NCBI GenBank assembly: GCA_016932035.1
Contig: JAFGDR010000025.1
Span: forward strand, 1 to 64,000
Origin: Candidatus Cloacimonadota bacterium
GTDB taxonomy: Bacteria; Cloacimonadota; Cloacimonadia; JGIOTU-2
DNA: 64,000 bases
Reading direction: 5' to 3'
Under the pieces are notes generated by a model. That model saw only the letters and a list, made by a program, of their open reading frames with translations, was not told where the DNA came from and searched no databases. This document shows positions 16,646 through 39,097 of this stretch, piece by piece. Position 1 is the first letter of the stretch; each line of letters begins with the position of its first letter. Both the position numbers and the translations under genes were made by a program.

Positions 16646-17713
16646 TTACACCACATACATCGGATTAGAGAAGAGCCATCCTTTCAGTCCAATGAAGACT
16701 TCTATTCGATACAATCCCTTTTCTTTAATTGGATATGATATCTTATTTCGATATTCTGTGTGTACTACTTTTCCGTTATGAATAATTTTTACATGGCAAT
16801 CCTGCTGTAGATATATATAGAGATATAATTCTCTTTCAGATATTGAAATTTCTTCACCGGGCAATGCGAAATTCTCTGTGATCTTAGATTCAATTCCGCA
16901 ATAGAACATATAAGGATCAGCATGTGTGTAATTCACAACATATGAATTCCCTGCCTTGAGCTTCGAGAGAATTGCTTGCTCGGGTTTTTTGTCAGAAATG
17001 GGTTCTCTTGTCTGGATATTCGTGCGGATTGTCTTGAATAATTTCTTATGAGGAAGGAAGGATATCGAAAACGGACCAAAAGAATACTTGTTCTGATGAG
17101 AATCAACACTCCCGATGGCTGGAATTCTTCGACCGTTATTGTTCAATTCATCCCATTTTCTGACTGTTTGTTTGTTGGGTCTGCTTATCGAAGTATCGGG
17201 AAATAGTATTTTAGGGATTACGTTCAAGGGAATGCGTAACTTATCAGTCCATTCGGAGATATAATTCCAGATTTCCATACCATCAAATTCCATGACTGAC
17301 CAATCAGTCCAAACATAGGTTCTCAGTGTTCGCCGCGATTTTCTTTTCTCAAAAGGATGTGCTATAAAACCTATTCCACCTTGTTCTCTTGTTTTTGAAA
17401 CATATTCCTCAACTGTCATTGTCAGGGGGTAAACTTCATCAATATCGAAGATTAGGTAGTGGTTATTTTTGTTTGCATCATTCATCTCATAACCGATAAT
17501 TGGTATAACATTATGTGGAAGTAACAAAGATAGTTCTTTTTTCACATCTATATTTCTATGATCGGTAATTATGAGAAAATCAATATGTTCCTGCTGAGCT
17601 ATTTCAACTATTTCTTGTAGTGTGCCGTGTCCATCAAAGGAGTGCTCAGTATGAATATGTATAACTCCTGTATACTCATATATCTCTTTTCCAAAGACTG
17701 ATTTTTTTATCAT
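16646..17713 (-). CDS. PHP-domain phosphoesterase-like protein
   Basis: A 355-residue protein with an N-terminal PHP fold: HIHTEHSFDG (H19, H21) and FLIITDHRNI supply the first metal-binding residues, with AHPFEKRKS and SVDSHQNK further on. The last ~90 residues are a beta-rich domain without catalytic motifs. The start at 17713 has AAGGA five bases upstream; a longer frame would begin at a TTG that coincides with a TTGACA promoter-like hexamer and is rejected. Members hydrolyse phosphate esters or act in polymerase proofreading; this stand-alone form is of unknown substrate. Confidence 0.8.
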   Translation of the reverse strand: MIKKSVFGKEIYEYTGVIHIHTEHSFDGHGTLQEIVEIAQQEHIDFLIITDHRNIDVKKELSLLLPHNVIPIIGYEMNDANKNNHYLIFDIDEVYPLTMTVEEYVSKTREQGGIGFIAHPFEKRKSRRTLRTYVWTDWSVMEFDGMEIWNYISEWTDKLRIPLNVIPKILFPDTSISRPNKQTVRKWDELNNNGRRIPAIGSVDSHQNKYSFGPFSISFLPHKKLFKTIRTNIQTREPISDKKPEQAILSKLKAGNSYVVNYTHADPYMFYCGIESKITENFALPGEEISISERELYLYIYLQQDCHVKIIHNGKVVHTEYRNKISYPIKEKGLYRIEVFIGLKGWLFSNPMYVV

Positions 17714-17857
17714 GTAAATCCTTTTGGGTAACCCATTGTTTTGGGTTGAGATTGTCAATAATTATTGAGATAATAAAACTTTATTTTATAAATTCCTAAA
17801 AAAGTTGACTTTTTTTTGTACGACATTTTTTTTTATCATCAACTTTCGGAGTTTGCC

Positions 17858-19843
17858 ATGAAAAAAAATATATTATTGGTTATCCTTACAACATTTTTAT
17901 TTTTTACAGCATGTGAAAATGTAACAGAAACAATAACACAAGATGATCCTATAAACATAAATACAATTCAAGTACCTGAAGATTTTGCGTATGAGACCTG
18001 TATAGATGTCACTGTAGATCTACATGTTACATCTCCTATTGATGAACCTGTTAAAGGTATCAATTTTGAGATCTATGATGCTCATCCTGATGCTGGTGGT
18101 AGATTAGTTGCAAAAGGTATAACACTTGGTGGTGGAAAATATCAAACTCAAATTATTGTTCCTGAAGGTTGTACAGAAGTAGCTGTTGTCAGCCCAATAG
18201 ATATTCGTATGATCCCAATTGTCAATGGCGAACTATACTTTGAATATGGTGATTATACAAAACTTGAAGCCCCATTTCTTGATCCAAAGGGTTACAATCC
18301 CACTACAAAATTAACTAATTATTGCCTAAGCTTTGACGGGGTTAATGACTATGTTGATCTTGGTGATGTTTCAGAATTAAACAATGTTTCGACATTCACT
18401 GTTGAAGGACGGGCATGTCAAGCCAGTAACACTGACAGCGAAATTATATTTTCGAAATATTCTGATGCGAATAATGACATCAGTATATACACAGGTGGTG
18501 GAACATTCTATATCGACCTGGGTAACGGGTCAGACTCCTATGCCACCTGGGCAGGGTATGATGCAGCAATTTCCAGCAACACTTGGTTTCATTGGGCAGT
18601 TGTTTTTGACGGAGCTGGTGGCACGAATGCAGACAGACTAAAATTGTACATTAATGGGAATTCAACACCCATTACATTAGCATTTACGGGAACTATTCCG
18701 GCAACTACTTCTTCCAATCTTTCGGGGAATAATGCATCATTATCAACAACAGCTAGTCCTTTTGGTGGTTACATGGATGAAGTCCGTGTATGGTCAACTG
18801 CACGTTCAGGAGCACAGGTTAATTCAACATATAATAAGCTCATTGATCCATCAACTTCAGGACTTGTAGCATACTGGAGAATGGATGAAGGAACTGGTGC
18901 AACTATGCTATATGATGAAACATCAAATGATTATGACGCACCGATAAATGGTTGCACTTGGGCACAGTTCATCAATGGCTGGGATAGTGACAGTGATGGA
19001 GTGACTGATATGAACGACGATTACCCCATGGACGACGAACGTGCATATGATAGTTATTTCCCTGCACAGGATACGTACTATACATTAGCTTTTGAAGATA
19101 AATGGCCCCGAAAGAATGATTATGATTTTAATGATATTGTCATACACTGGAATTTTACACAGGTTACGAATGCAAGTAATGAACTGGTTGATATACATGG
19201 TTCGTTCAAACTTGAAGCTATTGGAGCAGGCTATCACGATGGTTTTGGTGTGCAGTTTCCTTTTTTGAGGGGCAACTATTATGCGTTCAATAACCATGGA
19301 GATGACCACCAGTATTTCGATAACGGCACCACTAATGCAGTAGTTATTCTTTTCCAGGATGCCTTCAACCTTATGCAGGAAGCACCCGGAGATCCTTCAA
19401 CATGGATCAATACGGTTGAGAGCGAATCATACATAACCCCTGCGGAATTCGAATTCACCTATACACTGGGAACACCAATTGCTGTAGCAAGTCTGACACG
19501 AACACCACCTTATAATCCCTTCATTTATGTTAATAATGACCGTCTTCTGGAAATTCATCTTCCTGATTATGAGCCCACATCAAAGATGGCAGCAACCACT
19601 CATTGGGGAACATACGATGATGACTCCAACCCTGGAACAGATCGGTATTTCAAAACTTCGAACAATTTACCTTGGGTTATCAATGTAGCTGATGAATGGG
19701 AATATCCAATCGAGAAGATTCAGATCACATGGGCATACTTATTCTTTGCCGATTGGGCAGAAAGCGGGGGTGCCTTGCATAATGATTGGTATGACAGCTC
19801 TGTTCCTGCAAACATCGATGCAAATTATATCTATTCACCCTAA
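17858..19843 (+). CDS. LamG and LruC-domain lipoprotein (tandem paralogue A)
   Basis: A 661-residue lipoprotein starting at ATG 17858 behind CGGAG. The signal ends in a lipobox-like FFTAC (C19). Residues ~25-135 are a beta-sandwich carboxypeptidase-regulatory-like domain shared with the next gene. Residues ~155-345 are a LamG/concanavalin-like fold (FDGVNDYVDLGD ... AYWRMDEGTG). A calcium-type DSDSDGVTDMNDD linker leads to a C-terminal LruC/DUF4842 domain (FEDKWPRKNDYDFNDIV). LruC-domain proteins are surface lipoproteins of FCB and spirochaete lineages; function is poorly known. The first and last thirds match the following gene closely, whereas the middle does not. Confidence 0.82.
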   Translation: MKKNILLVILTTFLFFTACENVTETITQDDPININTIQVPEDFAYETCIDVTVDLHVTSPIDEPVKGINFEIYDAHPDAGGRLVAKGITLGGGKYQTQIIVPEGCTEVAVVSPIDIRMIPIVNGELYFEYGDYTKLEAPFLDPKGYNPTTKLTNYCLSFDGVNDYVDLGDVSELNNVSTFTVEGRACQASNTDSEIIFSKYSDANNDISIYTGGGTFYIDLGNGSDSYATWAGYDAAISSNTWFHWAVVFDGAGGTNADRLKLYINGNSTPITLAFTGTIPATTSSNLSGNNASLSTTASPFGGYMDEVRVWSTARSGAQVNSTYNKLIDPSTSGLVAYWRMDEGTGATMLYDETSNDYDAPINGCTWAQFINGWDSDSDGVTDMNDDYPMDDERAYDSYFPAQDTYYTLAFEDKWPRKNDYDFNDIVIHWNFTQVTNASNELVDIHGSFKLEAIGAGYHDGFGVQFPFLRGNYYAFNNHGDDHQYFDNGTTNAVVILFQDAFNLMQEAPGDPSTWINTVESESYITPAEFEFTYTLGTPIAVASLTRTPPYNPFIYVNNDRLLEIHLPDYEPTSKMAATTHWGTYDDDSNPGTDRYFKTSNNLPWVINVADEWEYPIEKIQITWAYLFFADWAESGGALHNDWYDSSVPANIDANYIYSP

Positions 19844-19868
19844 TAAAACAGATAAGCATATAAATTCC

Positions 19869-19897
19869 AAGCCAGGTTTCATGCCTGGCTTTTTTTA
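19869..19897 (+). terminator. Intrinsic terminator after LruC paralogue A
   Basis: Perfect 7-bp stem AGCCAGG/CCTGGCT with loop TTTCATG and a run of eight Ts. The same hairpin is repeated after the second paralogue, which shows the duplicated unit included its terminator. Confidence 0.9.
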
Positions 19898-19978
19898 ATG
19901 TGAGAAATAAATAATAAAAAACTTGACCAACATGGAAGAATATACAAAAATACATTCAACAATTCATTTGGAGGACGA

Positions 19979-22123
19979 ATGAAGAAGATTTGTATATTTT
20001 TAACGTTTGTTTTTTTATTTGTTTTTACTGCTTGTGAACAGACAACAAACATAGGAAATGATGATCCCATTGATATAAATCAAATTCAAGTTCCCGAAGA
20101 TTTCAATTACAGAACAATCCAGTCTGTGTATGTCGATCTTAGTGTCACAGATAACTCGAATGAACCTATTGAAGGGATCATATTCAAGATATATGATAAC
20201 GATCCCGAAGATGATGGACGATTTATTGCAAAGGGCATGACACTGTCTGATGGTGCGTTCAACACGATCGTTGCAGTACCCTGTGACTGTGAACAATTAA
20301 CCGTGGTCAGTCCGTTTGGCACACAGGAGGTGCCGATCATTAACGGGGAGCTGCAGTTTGAATTTGGAGATGATACATATCTTCTTCCCGACACACCCTG
20401 TCTATGTATGTCATCCGGGAAGAGTTCCGATGAGAAAATTTCTGAATCTGCAGATACCAAACGCGGAGGGAGTATTTCTGATCTTGAGGTGAATGAAGAA
20501 TATGAAAGGAGAAAATTACAGGAAACTGCGCACATAACGAATCCACAATCTGGCTTGATCCCCGATGATGTATGCCCAACAAAAACTTTGCCAAATATAG
20601 ATGCACCAGCATCGCACTCCGAAGATGGTGGTAAAAACACAACGTATGTACCCGATGATAACTTTGAACAAGCCTTAATTGATTGGGGCTATGATGATGT
20701 ATTGGATGATTATGTATTAACGGCTAATATTAATACGGTTACGAGTCTTGATGTCACTTCTAGAAGTATTAGTGATTTAACAGGTATTGAAGACTTTGTT
20801 GCTTTAACCGGTTTATATTGCTGGGGGAATCAACTCACGACATTGGATGTATCGGCTAATACAGTTTTAAATGATCTTTATTGTTATGTAAATCAACTCA
20901 CAAGTCTGGATGTATCCGCTAATACGGCATTAACAATCTTATGTTGTACTTATAATCAACTCACAAGTCTGGATGTATCCGCTAATACGGCATTAGAAGA
21001 ATTAAAATGCTGGGACAATCAACTCACAAACTTGGATGTATCTGCTAATACAGCTTTAACTATTCTAGGTTGTCATTTCAATCAACTCACAATGCTGAAC
21101 GTTAAAAATGGGAATAATACAAATTTTACTGAATTTGATGCATCAAATAATCCAAATTTAACATGTATCCAGGTAGATGATGCAGACTGGTCAACAGCTA
21201 ATTGGCCTTATAAAGATCCAACAGCATCGTACTCCGAAGATTGTGCTTATGGGACAGATACCGATGGAGATGGTGTTCCGGACGATGAAGATGATTATCC
21301 CGACGATCCCGATAGAGCATTTAATAACTATACCCCGTCAGAAAATACCTATTATACCCTTGCTTTTGAGGATAAATGGCCCAGTAAAGGCGATTATGAT
21401 TTCAATGATATTGTAATACTTTGGAGTTATATGCAGGTGACCAATGCGAGTAATGAACTTGTTGATATTCACGGTTCATTTAAGCTTGAAGCTATTGGAG
21501 CAGGCTATCACAATGGCTTTGGTGTACAGTTCCCCTTTGCAATCTCAAATTTCAGTGCCTTTGATGATCACGGAGATGCCCATCAATATGTTGATACTGG
21601 TACGAACAATGCAGTGGTCATTCTCTTCCAGGATGCATTCAACCTGATGCAGGAAGCACCTGGAGATCCTTCAACATGGATCAATACGGTTGAGAGCGAA
21701 ACATACATCACACCTGCAGAGTTCGAGTTCACATATACTTTAGACACACCGATCGCTGTAGCTAGTCTGACAAGAACTGCTCCTTACAATCCATTCATAT
21801 ACGTTAATGATGACAGACAAAAAGAGATTCATCTTCCCGATTATGAGCCCACGATCAAGATGGCTGGCACACCCCATTGGGGAACCTGTGACGATGACTC
21901 AGATCCTACTGCTCCCGATCCCAAATACTTTAAAACATCAAATAATTTACCATGGGCGATTAATGTAGCAGATGAATGGGATTATCCTATTGAACTATCT
22001 CCAATTAATTGGGCATATTTGTTCTTTGTGGATTGGGCAGAAAACGGTGGTAACACACACACAGATTGGTATGATAGCTCTGTTCCTGCAAACATTGATG
22101 CCAATAATATCTATTCACCCTAA
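19979..22123 (+). CDS. LRR and LruC-domain lipoprotein (tandem paralogue B)
   Basis: A 714-residue lipoprotein, start ATG 19979 behind GGAGG. The signal ends at FVFTAC. The N-terminal beta-sandwich (to ~residue 130) parallels paralogue A (DDPIDINQIQVPEDF against DDPININTIQVPEDF). A linker (~140-225) precedes four and a half 21-residue leucine-rich repeats (~283-380; NQLTSLDVSANTALxxLxC), then TDTDGDGVPDDEDDYPDD and the LruC/DUF4842 domain, nearly the same as A in protein and DNA. The LRR block probably mediates binding. The pair looks like a duplication in which the middle module was exchanged. Confidence 0.82.
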   Translation: MKKICIFLTFVFLFVFTACEQTTNIGNDDPIDINQIQVPEDFNYRTIQSVYVDLSVTDNSNEPIEGIIFKIYDNDPEDDGRFIAKGMTLSDGAFNTIVAVPCDCEQLTVVSPFGTQEVPIINGELQFEFGDDTYLLPDTPCLCMSSGKSSDEKISESADTKRGGSISDLEVNEEYERRKLQETAHITNPQSGLIPDDVCPTKTLPNIDAPASHSEDGGKNTTYVPDDNFEQALIDWGYDDVLDDYVLTANINTVTSLDVTSRSISDLTGIEDFVALTGLYCWGNQLTTLDVSANTVLNDLYCYVNQLTSLDVSANTALTILCCTYNQLTSLDVSANTALEELKCWDNQLTNLDVSANTALTILGCHFNQLTMLNVKNGNNTNFTEFDASNNPNLTCIQVDDADWSTANWPYKDPTASYSEDCAYGTDTDGDGVPDDEDDYPDDPDRAFNNYTPSENTYYTLAFEDKWPSKGDYDFNDIVILWSYMQVTNASNELVDIHGSFKLEAIGAGYHNGFGVQFPFAISNFSAFDDHGDAHQYVDTGTNNAVVILFQDAFNLMQEAPGDPSTWINTVESETYITPAEFEFTYTLDTPIAVASLTRTAPYNPFIYVNDDRQKEIHLPDYEPTIKMAGTPHWGTCDDDSDPTAPDPKYFKTSNNLPWAINVADEWDYPIELSPINWAYLFFVDWAENGGNTHTDWYDSSVPANIDANNIYSP
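20828..21091 (+). repeat. 63-bp in-frame tandem repeats encoding leucine-rich repeats
   Basis: Four full units of exactly 63 bases begin at 20828, 20891, 20954 and 21017, each opening AATCAACTCACA or AATCAACTCACG, with a partial fifth at 21080. Units two and three are almost identical over their first 45 bases, so copy number may change by slippage or recombination. Confidence 0.9.
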
Positions 22124-22148
22124 TAAAACAGTTAAACATATAAATTTA

Positions 22149-22178
22149 AAGCCAGGTTTCATGCCTGGCTTTTGTTTT
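22149..22178 (+). terminator. Intrinsic terminator after LruC paralogue B
   Basis: Same stem-loop as after paralogue A (AGCCAGG, TTTCATG loop, CCTGGCT) followed by TTTGTTTT. Confidence 0.85.
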
Positions 22179-22187
22179 GAAAGAAGA

Positions 22188-22217
22188 TTGACATTTTTTT
22201 TCATTGAGTTTTGAAAT
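22188..22217 (+). promoter_or_regulatory. Possible promoter of the permease gene, almost leaderless
   Basis: TTGACA at 22188-22193, an 18-base spacer rich in T, and TGAAAT at 22212-22217 as -10 candidate. The preferred ATG is at 22222, so a transcript from here would have virtually no 5' leader. The -10 is weak. Confidence 0.35.
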
Positions 22218-22221
22218 AATT

Positions 22222-24093
22222 ATGGCGGAAAAACAGATACTCCAAAAAAAATTAAATCTAATCGATGTGTTTAGCATAGCGAGTGGCGCAATGATAAGTT
22301 CCGGGTTGTTCGTGTTACCCGGTCTTGCCTTTGCAAAAGCAGGTCCTGCAGTTGTTGTCGCATATATTTTAGCAGGTTTAATAGTGATCCCAGGAATGCT
22401 TGCTCAAATCGAACTCAGCACTGCAATGCCCAAAGCCGGAGGCAGTTATTTCTTTATTGAACGTAGTATGGGTCCCGTTGCCGGTACTCTTGGGGGATTT
22501 GCAAGCTGGTTAAGCCTGGCTTTAAAAAGTGCCTTTGCACTTATCGGGATCGGTGCATTTGCCAATTTACTTTTTCCAGGATTATCGGAAATTCATATCA
22601 AAGTAATTGCTATTGCTTTCTGCTTGTTGTTTGCTCTTATCAACATCAGAAGTGTGAAAAATACGAGCAGGTTTCAGATATTCCTTGTTATCTCATTACT
22701 TGCTATTCTGTTTTTATACTGCTTACTCGGAGTCACAAAGGTAAATTTACACAATTTTATACCCTTTTCACCAAAAGGTTTTGGTGCAGTCATTCCTGTT
22801 GTCGGCCTTGTTTTTGTTTCCTTTGGCGGTTTAACAAAGGTTGCAAGTATTGCTGAGGAGATCCAAAAACCCAAGAAAAATCTCCCTCTTGGTATGTTCA
22901 TTGCTTTTATTGTCGTGATGTTTTTTTATGTAGCAGTTGTGTTCGTAACAGTAGGAATAGTCCGACCTGAAACTCTTGCGAATTCTCTAACACCAATTTC
23001 AAAAGGTGGAGATGTTATCTTTGGAAAGTTCGGCATGATCTTACTTGCTGTTGCTGCTCTTTTCGCCTTTTTCTCGACAGCAAATGCTGGTATCCTGTCA
23101 GCATCACGATTCCCGATGGCAATGAGCAGGGACAGACTTGTTCCAAATATTTTCAGTAAAATGAGCAAAAGTGGACAAACGCCCTATATGTCGATCATGT
23201 TTACTGCACTGTTCATGATCGTTATGATAACATTTCTTAACCTGGAAAACCTCGTGAAAGCGGCATCTACCATGATGATCATCCTCTTCCTCTATACCAA
23301 TGTCGCTTTGATCGTTATGAGAGAGAGCAGGATTGATACCTATCAACCATCATTTAAGGCGCCGCTTTATCCATGGCTGCAGATTGTTGCGATCATCATA
23401 TATGCTTTTCTCATCTTCGAAATGGGAATAATACCCCTCATCATTACAGGAATATTTGTTCTCTTGTGTATTGCCTGGTATTTTCTTTACGTTCGTGTAC
23501 GAGTAGAAAGAAAATCAGCGCTGATTCATATCGTAGAAAGGGTAACCAATAAGAAGATCTCGAGTTCAACATTAATTGATGAATTGAAGGAGATCCTTAT
23601 CCGGCGGGATAATATCGTTGAAGACAGGTTCGATAAACTCGTTCGGTCAGCTGTAATTCTCGATCTTGATTGTCAAATCGGTAAAAATGAATTTTTCACT
23701 ATCGTATCAAAAGAACTCGCTCCTCGACTCGATATTCCATATCATGAACTATATGATCTTTTTTTGGAAAGGGAGCAGCAGTCATCAACAACACTCGAGC
23801 CAGGTCTTGCAATTCCACATATTATCGTTCAGGGTGAGAAGAAATTTGATATCCTCATCGTTCGATGTAAAGAAGGAATAAAATTTGACGAAAATGAACC
23901 ACCTGTCCATACCGTGTTCGTGCTGATCGGTTCGATGGATGAACGCAATTTCCATCTTCGTGCGCTTATGTCAATAGCTCAGATCGTGAAAGAGAAAAAT
24001 TTCTACACAAGATGGAAAAATGCAAAAAATGTCGATGAGTTACGAAATATTATATATTTATCAGCAAGAAAGCGAGAGTCAAATGAGAACTAA
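22222..24093 (+). CDS. APC-family amino acid permease fused to a PTS EIIA-like domain
   Basis: A 623-residue inner-membrane protein. Residues ~10-425 hold about twelve membrane segments with the APC-superfamily opening FSIASGAMISSGLFVLPG and GGLTKVASIAEEIQKPKKN, expected to import amino acids. A cytoplasmic tail (~440-615) is a phosphotransferase EIIA type-2 fold with the phospho-acceptor-like histidine in EPGLAIPH (H533). Such fusions suggest transport is controlled by a phosphorelay or domain sensing rather than sugar uptake. An in-frame TTG six codons upstream is an alternative start; neither has a good ribosome-binding site. It overlaps the PspC gene by 11 bases. Confidence 0.83.
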   Translation: MAEKQILQKKLNLIDVFSIASGAMISSGLFVLPGLAFAKAGPAVVVAYILAGLIVIPGMLAQIELSTAMPKAGGSYFFIERSMGPVAGTLGGFASWLSLALKSAFALIGIGAFANLLFPGLSEIHIKVIAIAFCLLFALINIRSVKNTSRFQIFLVISLLAILFLYCLLGVTKVNLHNFIPFSPKGFGAVIPVVGLVFVSFGGLTKVASIAEEIQKPKKNLPLGMFIAFIVVMFFYVAVVFVTVGIVRPETLANSLTPISKGGDVIFGKFGMILLAVAALFAFFSTANAGILSASRFPMAMSRDRLVPNIFSKMSKSGQTPYMSIMFTALFMIVMITFLNLENLVKAASTMMIILFLYTNVALIVMRESRIDTYQPSFKAPLYPWLQIVAIIIYAFLIFEMGIIPLIITGIFVLLCIAWYFLYVRVRVERKSALIHIVERVTNKKISSSTLIDELKEILIRRDNIVEDRFDKLVRSAVILDLDCQIGKNEFFTIVSKELAPRLDIPYHELYDLFLEREQQSSTTLEPGLAIPHIIVQGEKKFDILIVRCKEGIKFDENEPPVHTVFVLIGSMDERNFHLRALMSIAQIVKEKNFYTRWKNAKNVDELRNIIYLSARKRESNEN

Positions 24094-38956: not shown

Positions 38957-38986
38957 AAAAAAACCGGTCATCAAAGGATGCCCGGT
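38957..38986 (-). terminator. Riboswitch-linked intrinsic terminator
   Basis: On the minus strand a hairpin ACCGGGCATC/GATGACCGGT (one mismatch, loop CTTT) is followed by TTTTTTT, between the TPP aptamer and the thiE start. This placement fits transcription attenuation when TPP is bound. Confidence 0.85.
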
Positions 38987-38991
38987 ACCAT

Positions 38992-39064
38992 CATTTCCTA
39001 CGCCAGCATTATCTGGATCAGGTTCATAGGGTATGTTCTCAGCTCATGGGAGCACCCCTGAAAA
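38992..39064 (-). promoter_or_regulatory. TPP riboswitch (THI element)
   Basis: The minus strand carries the THI-box core: CAGGGGTGC, CTGAGA, ATACCCT, GAACCTGATC, ATAATGCTGGCGTAGGAA. P1 forms from TTTTC with GGAAA. It precedes thiE-thiM-thiC-thiD, with a terminator 5 bases further on. TPP binding would be expected to favour the terminator and switch the operon off. Confidence 0.96.
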
Positions 39065-39068
39065 GGAT

Positions 39069-39097
39069 AGAATTGCACTATCCAGATATTATGTCAA
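39069..39097 (-). promoter_or_regulatory. Probable promoter of the riboswitch leader
   Basis: On the minus strand, TTGACA (39092-39097), 17-base spacer, and a weak AATTCT at 39069-39074, placed so that the transcript starts right at the aptamer. It lies only 9 bases beyond the upstream gene's stop, so the thi operon is separately transcribed. Confidence 0.4.

What the first reader, a model, noticed from the sequence alone, without database searches (positions are those of the whole stretch)
17858..22178. Tandem LruC lipoproteins that swapped their middle module
Two adjacent genes share the signal and N-terminal beta-sandwich, the LruC domain (long identical DNA stretches near 19381-19430 and 21655-21705) and the terminator hairpin, but one has a LamG fold and the other leucine-rich repeats in the centre. 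This is a duplicated cassette with exchange of the probable ligand-binding part, as in antigenic or receptor variation.
Basis: partly seen in the sequence, partly recalled or inferred. Interest (0 to 1): 0.6.

Follow-up and report, generated by a model that had tools for sequence, protein, structure and literature searches.

The report
Tandem lipoproteins with exchanged middle modules
Two neighbouring surface-type lipoprotein genes of an uncultured Cloacimonadota bacterium share the same start and end but carry different binding-type modules in the middle, and related species have the same or yet other modules, or no gene at all, at this spot, so the site shows natural module replacement on an otherwise known family of proteins.

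Summary
Genes A (17858-19843) and B (19979-22123) share a lipoprotein signal, an N-terminal domain (50% aa), the LruC domain (79% aa) and a terminator hairpin found nowhere else in the genome. Between sharp borders they have unrelated middles: LamG in A, internalin-J-like LRRs in B. The pair sits between a PHP-domain gene and an amino-acid permease gene. In relatives that site holds LamG + DUF4114 genes (L075), LamG alone (G002), DUF4114 alone (G007), a LruC remnant (G005) or nothing (G006), with the same module borders. Trees of N domain and LruC both put B among the LamG genes and reject orthology with the DUF4114 genes. So B is most simply a duplicate whose middle was replaced; its LRR occurs once in the genome and in no family mate. 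The duplication predates the nearest species split, but the last ~100 bp were homogenised later. Across 144 LruC proteins there are about 25 kinds of middle. 'Antigenic variation' is not supported: no silent cassettes or recombinase found, and old divergence. Best reading: an outer-membrane lipoprotein frame presenting exchangeable ligand-binding modules. LruC proteins are known; the site-level module turnover is the new part.

The parts
17858..19843 (+). gene A: 661-aa lipoprotein, N domain + LamG + LruC
   Evidence: ORF; Pfam/NCBIfam
17858..17914 (+). A: lipoprotein signal peptide, lipobox ..FFTA-C19
   Evidence: sequence; C19 invariant in a 37-sequence alignment
17915..18265 (+). A: N-terminal beta-sandwich domain (residues 20-136)
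   Evidence: shared with B and with most other LruC proteins surveyed; AF2 pLDDT mostly 80-95
18266..18976 (+). A: exchangeable middle module, LamG (Pfam match residues 160-321)
   Evidence: Pfam; no similarity to B here
18983..19057 (+). A: Asp-rich linker DSDSDGVTDMNDDYP (calcium-binding-type), 3' border of the module
   Evidence: sequence; BLASTP similarity resumes at residue 374
19079..19792 (+). A: LruC domain
   Evidence: TIGR04456 E 4.5e-67
19790..19892 (+). A copy of homogenised 3' tract (95/103 identical to 22070-22172)
19869..19894 (+). A: intrinsic terminator hairpin AAGCCAGGTTTCATGCCTGGCTTTTT
   Evidence: only two copies in genome
19979..22123 (+). gene B: 714-aa lipoprotein, N domain + LRR + LruC
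   Evidence: ORF
20036..20383 (+). B: N-terminal beta-sandwich domain (residues 20-135)
20564..20630 (+). direct repeat left of the LRR array (73% to 21179-21245), looks like a remnant LRR cap
20645..21244 (+). B: exchangeable middle module, internalin-J-like leucine-rich repeats
   Evidence: single copy in genome, absent from all family mates searched
21263..21337 (+). B: Asp-rich linker DTDGDGVPDDEDDYP
   Evidence: sequence
21353..22072 (+). B: LruC domain
   Evidence: TIGR04456 E 7.5e-65
22149..22173 (+). B: terminator hairpin identical to A's
16646..17758 (-). PHP-domain gene, left border of the syntenic site
22204..24093 (+). amino-acid permease gene, right border of the syntenic site

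Best explanation
The locus encodes outer-membrane lipoproteins built as a fixed frame (lipid anchor, N-terminal beta-sandwich spacer, Asp-rich linker, C-terminal LruC domain) that holds one exchangeable ligand-binding module. Best supported by the sequence: a gene of this site's LamG lineage was duplicated before the window species and its nearest relative separated, and the second copy, B, has an internalin-J-like LRR where A has LamG, with borders at residue ~135 and at the Asp-rich linker. The same borders enclose a DUF4114 module in relatives. Later the 3' ends of A and B were made alike by short recombination. Inferred: the LRR came from outside the genome, from the LRR type seen in Bacteroidota; the conserved N and LruC parts supply homology for such exchange; the proteins sit on the cell surface, where LamG binds glycans and LRR binds protein, for capture of substrates or attachment.
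For: Sharp borders in pairs with different middles: N part ends at about residue 133-136, C part begins at 374-387 (A), 425-440 (B), 387 (G007) (a few pairs give joined or longer HSPs with low identity between). Syntenic site: window LamG+LRR; L075 LamG+DUF4114 (second gene 76% identical to G007's over 311 aa); G002 LamG; G007 DUF4114; G005 LruC remnant; G006 empty. Trees: the site genes form one clade for LruC (99/99) and N (100/99); B lies with LamG genes (100/99 LruC, 98/97 N); B with DUF4114 genes rejected (p-AU 0.0007 LruC, 0.006 N). 79 Cloacimonadota LruC domains: at least 18 changes of middle type on the LruC tree, 45 on average for shuffled labels. LRR single in genome, absent from family mates, best relatives up to 56% identical in other genomes that carry LruC genes, mostly Bacteroidota. 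3' tail A/B 48/52 identical against 34/47 for A/ortholog. LruC homogenisation in another tandem pair (L048: 819 bp at 98.5%, upstream ~57%). Fold: best PDB hit is B. ovatus lipoprotein BACOVA_00967.
Against: Function is untested. [quoted passage not shown] The exact branching of B differs between the N tree (with G002 LamG) and the LruC tree (outside the LamG genes), so whether LamG was replaced by LRR, or both replaced DUF4114, is not settled. No strain-level data. LamG and LRR ligands unknown.
Confidence: 0.72

Rival explanations
1. B is a whole gene acquired from another species of the same genus (xenologue), already carrying the LRR, that landed beside A; no exchange took place in this genome.
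For: B's N domain groups with G002's LamG gene and not with A (87/81), and B's LruC lies outside the three LamG genes (86/91); exclusive A+B sisterhood in LruC is rejected (p-AU 0.036).
Against: Still needs a LamG/LRR exchange somewhere in the genus; no other LRR-LruC gene seen in 125 Cloacimonadota genomes; A and B share a derived terminator, though conversion could explain that.
Confidence: 0.18
2. Plain tandem duplication followed by fast divergence of the middle, without exchange.
For: Middle parts evolve faster than LruC in several tandem pairs.
Against: LamG and LRR are unrelated folds, each matched to its own family; no residual similarity; L075 and G007 show a third unrelated module at the same borders.
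Confidence: 0.02
3. Programmed antigenic or phase variation with cassette switching within a population.
For: Tandem copies, conserved flanks, variable centre; LruC homogenisation in L048.
Against: No silent LRR or N-domain cassettes elsewhere, no inverted repeats of note, no recombinase recognised among the ORFs read beside the genes, synonymous positions close to saturated.
Confidence: 0.04
4. The LruC part and the N part are just promiscuous domains and the two genes were assembled independently.
For: LruC occurs with and without the N domain and with ice-binding DUF3494 domains (PMC9957290).
Against: A and B are in one clade for both parts, are adjacent and share a terminator found nowhere else in the genome.
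Confidence: 0.03

Closest known systems
LruC domain (TIGR04456) / DUF4842 (PF16130) proteins: Leptospira LruC, LIC13086, Bacteroides ovatus BACOVA_00967 (PDB 3oqq)
   Same: Lipoprotein signal, C-terminal LruC/DUF4842 domain of Ig-like beta-sandwich type; both genes exceed the curated cut-offs; 3oqq is the top fold match.
   Different: Middle modules LamG and LRR; two unlike modules in adjacent copies; LIC13086 and LruC were studied as single proteins (PMC8280789).
Ice-binding proteins with C-terminal DUF4842 (PMC9957290)
   Same: DUF4842 as a constant C-terminal part behind a variable functional domain; ice-binding proteins often in tandem.
   Different: The functional domain is DUF3494, not LamG/LRR; no site-level module replacement described in the passages read.
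DUF1735 / BACON spacer lipoproteins of polysaccharide utilisation loci (PMC11216935)
   Same: Works alike: lipid-anchored Ig-like N-terminal spacer holding varied binding modules, LamG the commonest.
   Different: Not the same family: no LruC domain at the end, nearly confined to Bacteroidota PULs; no DUF1735 match here.
Internalin J LRR domain (PDB 3bz5)
   Same: Sequence match of B residues 222-375, E 4.9e-47.
   Different: Here in a lipoprotein with LruC, not a wall-anchored protein; the match says fold, not virulence.

Membership tests
LruC domain-containing proteins (TIGR04456/PF16130) | C-terminal LruC domain above curated cut-off | tested here: met
   A 223.8, B 216.4 bits against cut-off 36
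LruC domain-containing proteins (TIGR04456/PF16130) | lipoprotein signal with lipobox cysteine | tested here: met
   FTAC at residues 16-19 in both; C19 invariant in a 37-sequence alignment; no signal-peptide predictor run
LruC domain-containing proteins (TIGR04456/PF16130) | outer-membrane location | not testable with these tools
   Inferred; residue +2 after the cysteine is Glu, not Asp
LamG (Laminin_G_3) proteins | LamG/ConA-like fold in the middle of A | tested here: met
   E 1.7e-18; fold matches to laminin/agrin/neurexin LG domains despite low model confidence
Internalin-type LRR proteins | LRR array with cap | tested here: met
Internalin-type LRR proteins | LPXTG or GW wall attachment | tested here: not met
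   B ends with LruC and has a lipoprotein anchor instead
Phase- or antigenic-variation cassette loci | silent cassettes or invertible segment with recombinase | tested here: not met
   LRR single in genome; with A as query the N domain is hit only at A and B; no matching inverted repeats; genome is 66 contigs, 95% complete
DUF1735 spacer lipoproteins | DUF1735 domain | tested here: not met
   no Pfam match at E<=1

The most novel reading that the evidence does not exclude
LruC lipoprotein sites act as recombination platforms: conserved N and LruC ends, kept alike by conversion between tandem copies, let Cloacimonadota plug in foreign binding modules at fixed borders, so that surface binding specificity turns over between species at one chromosomal site.
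Probability: 0.3. Interest if true: 0.65.

Novelty: new variant of a known kind. Interest (0 to 1): 0.42.

Why it matters
LruC/DUF4842 is common and its function is unknown. One site in one genus that shows LamG, LRR, DUF4114, a remnant and an empty state gives a natural series for asking what the constant LruC part does and how binding modules are exchanged in uncultured bacteria. It also warns that the annotation 'LruC domain-containing protein' hides proteins with quite different likely ligands.

Tried and rejected
Antigenic variation by silent cassettes: rejected. Even decline of identity: rejected. B as ortholog of the DUF4114 gene with its middle replaced: rejected by both trees. Tandem pairs usually having different middles: no; of the other neighbouring pairs listed only L049 (convergent) and L107 differ, plus L075. 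A first synteny table used LruC queries translated out of frame and suggested that G002's LruC had been replaced; the corrected run gives 75% identity, and the idea was dropped. Plasmid and phage collections gave only distant LruC hits, none covering 80% of A. Papers on Cloacimonadota lipoproteins: none relevant. Structure prediction of the middles: too few relatives, low confidence.

Full report
Observation. Genes A (17858-19843, 661 aa) and B (19979-22123, 714 aa) are adjacent, same strand, 135 bp apart. Both have a lipobox (FTAC, residues 16-19), a common N-terminal domain, a middle, an Asp-rich linker (DxDxDGVxDxxDDYP) and an LruC/DUF4842 domain. A's middle is LamG (E 1.7e-18), B's is an array of four 63-nt LRR units related to internalin J. 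BLASTP finds two A/B segments only, 1-136 (50%) and 374-661 (78%). Third-position identity is about 0.44 in the N part and 0.54 in LruC, so this is not a young duplicate. The terminator AAGCCAGGTTTCATGCCTGGCTT occurs twice in the 2.44 Mb genome, once behind each gene; a relaxed pattern finds no more.

Organism. The window's genome is a Cloacimonadota: a congener, G007, has a contig of the same length (8548) and content as MVCT01000034.1, Candidatus Cloacimonas sp. 4484_140. The genome has four LruC genes.

Same site in relatives. Between the PHP gene and the permease gene: L075 (a contig filed under a Woesearchaeota bin, but with thrS-yhaM-PHP at 74-87% protein identity to the window) has a LamG-LruC gene 81% identical to A, then a second gene whose 312 readable residues match G007's DUF4114-LruC protein at 76%. 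G002 has one LamG-LruC gene. G007 has one DUF4114-LruC gene. G005 keeps only about 110 C-terminal codons of LruC and the terminator. G006 has no LruC match in about 530 bp. G001 and G004 contigs end there. The N part ends near residue 133-136 and the C part resumes just before or at the Asp-rich linker whichever modules are compared.

History. In a tree of 79 LruC domains the five site genes with a full LruC are one clade (SH-aLRT 100). Careful trees put B with the LamG genes for LruC (100/99) and for the N domain (98/97), and reject B as kin of the DUF4114 genes (p-AU 0.0007 and 0.006). A is closer to its L075 ortholog (LruC 91%) than to B (79%), and exclusive A+B is rejected (0.036), so the duplication predates that split. 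But the 3' tail of A and B is 48/52 identical, while A and its ortholog have 34/47; the relatives read have the loop form GGCAT..GTCTGG or close to it, and only A and B share GGTTTCATGCCTGG. The tract 19790-19892 is 95/103 identical against 558/726 upstream (Fisher p 1.6e-4). This is best read as a short later homogenisation. A stronger case is the tandem pair L048 (G046): LruC 819 bp at 98.5%, upstream about 57%. Its contig ends at the repeat, so assembly may have hidden single differences.

Source of the LRR. It occurs once in the genome and in none of the 16 family mates; elsewhere in the phylum the best hit is 51-54% in a distant family. Other genomes that hold LruC genes, mostly Bacteroidota, have it at up to 56% over the N-terminal 152 residues; none of the LRR loci fetched carries LruC within the DNA held. 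LRR GC is 0.348 against 0.41-0.42 for the B N domain and LruC. Import from outside is inferred, not shown.

How general. 144 LruC proteins fall into about 25 middle clusters: DUF4114 44, a short 'MECV' domain 14, RCC1 propeller 8, Ig-like 8, LamG 6, others; 14 have no middle or are cut; LRR only in B (Pfam check). Most tandem pairs have the same kind of middle, so the window pair is an exception. On the LruC tree there are at least 18 changes of middle type, against 45 on average (minimum 39) in shuffles: modules are mostly inherited, now and then replaced.

Mechanism, shown and inferred. Shown: frame conserved, middles of unrelated folds at the same borders, one site with three module types, loss and absence, later 3' homogenisation. 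Inferred: lipid-anchored outer-membrane display; LamG as glycan binder (the DUF1735-LamG protein BT3986 is described as a surface sugar-binding protein in PMC11216935) and LRR as protein binder; exchange by homologous recombination in the conserved parts or by illegitimate joining. The AF2 models give both constant domains at high confidence and Foldseek finds BACOVA_00967 first.

Relation to the known. Both genes are LruC family members by curated cut-offs. They work like DUF1735/BACON spacer lipoproteins but do not belong to them. DUF4842 behind other functional domains is already reported for ice-binding proteins (PMC9957290). What is added is the documented replacement at one chromosomal site and the homogenisation of the constant end.

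Noticed in passing
L074 (own genome contig C57, about 53.9-55.3 kb, reverse strand): Another LruC gene of the same genome has an in-frame TAA at codon 142 between N domain and LruC; the G007 ortholog (L058) is open throughout.
   Followed up: partly
20564-20630 and 21179-21245: Imperfect 67-nt direct repeats flank the LRR array; the upstream copy (..PNIDAPASHSEDGG) looks like the remnant of an LRR C-terminal cap, perhaps a scar of LRR insertion or an earlier longer array.
   Followed up: no
L048 (G046 contig C30): Tandem LruC pair with 819 bp of LruC at 98.5% identity and N + middle at about 57%: recent homogenisation; contig ends at the repeat.
   Followed up: partly
L075 (JAIPIC010000093.1): Contig in a MAG labelled Woesearchaeota archaeon is Cloacimonadota by gene content and synteny: apparently misbinned.
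   Followed up: yes
17858-18265: A's N-domain DNA has third-position GC of 0.08-0.22 against about 0.2-0.4 in the rest and in relatives.
   Followed up: no
38978-39069 (-): TPP riboswitch (Rfam RF00059, 62 bits).
   Followed up: no
L064, L066, L068, L071, L195, L199, L200: Family f3 Cloacimonadota have LruC proteins with RCC1-repeat propellers and no N domain: a further architecture.
   Followed up: no
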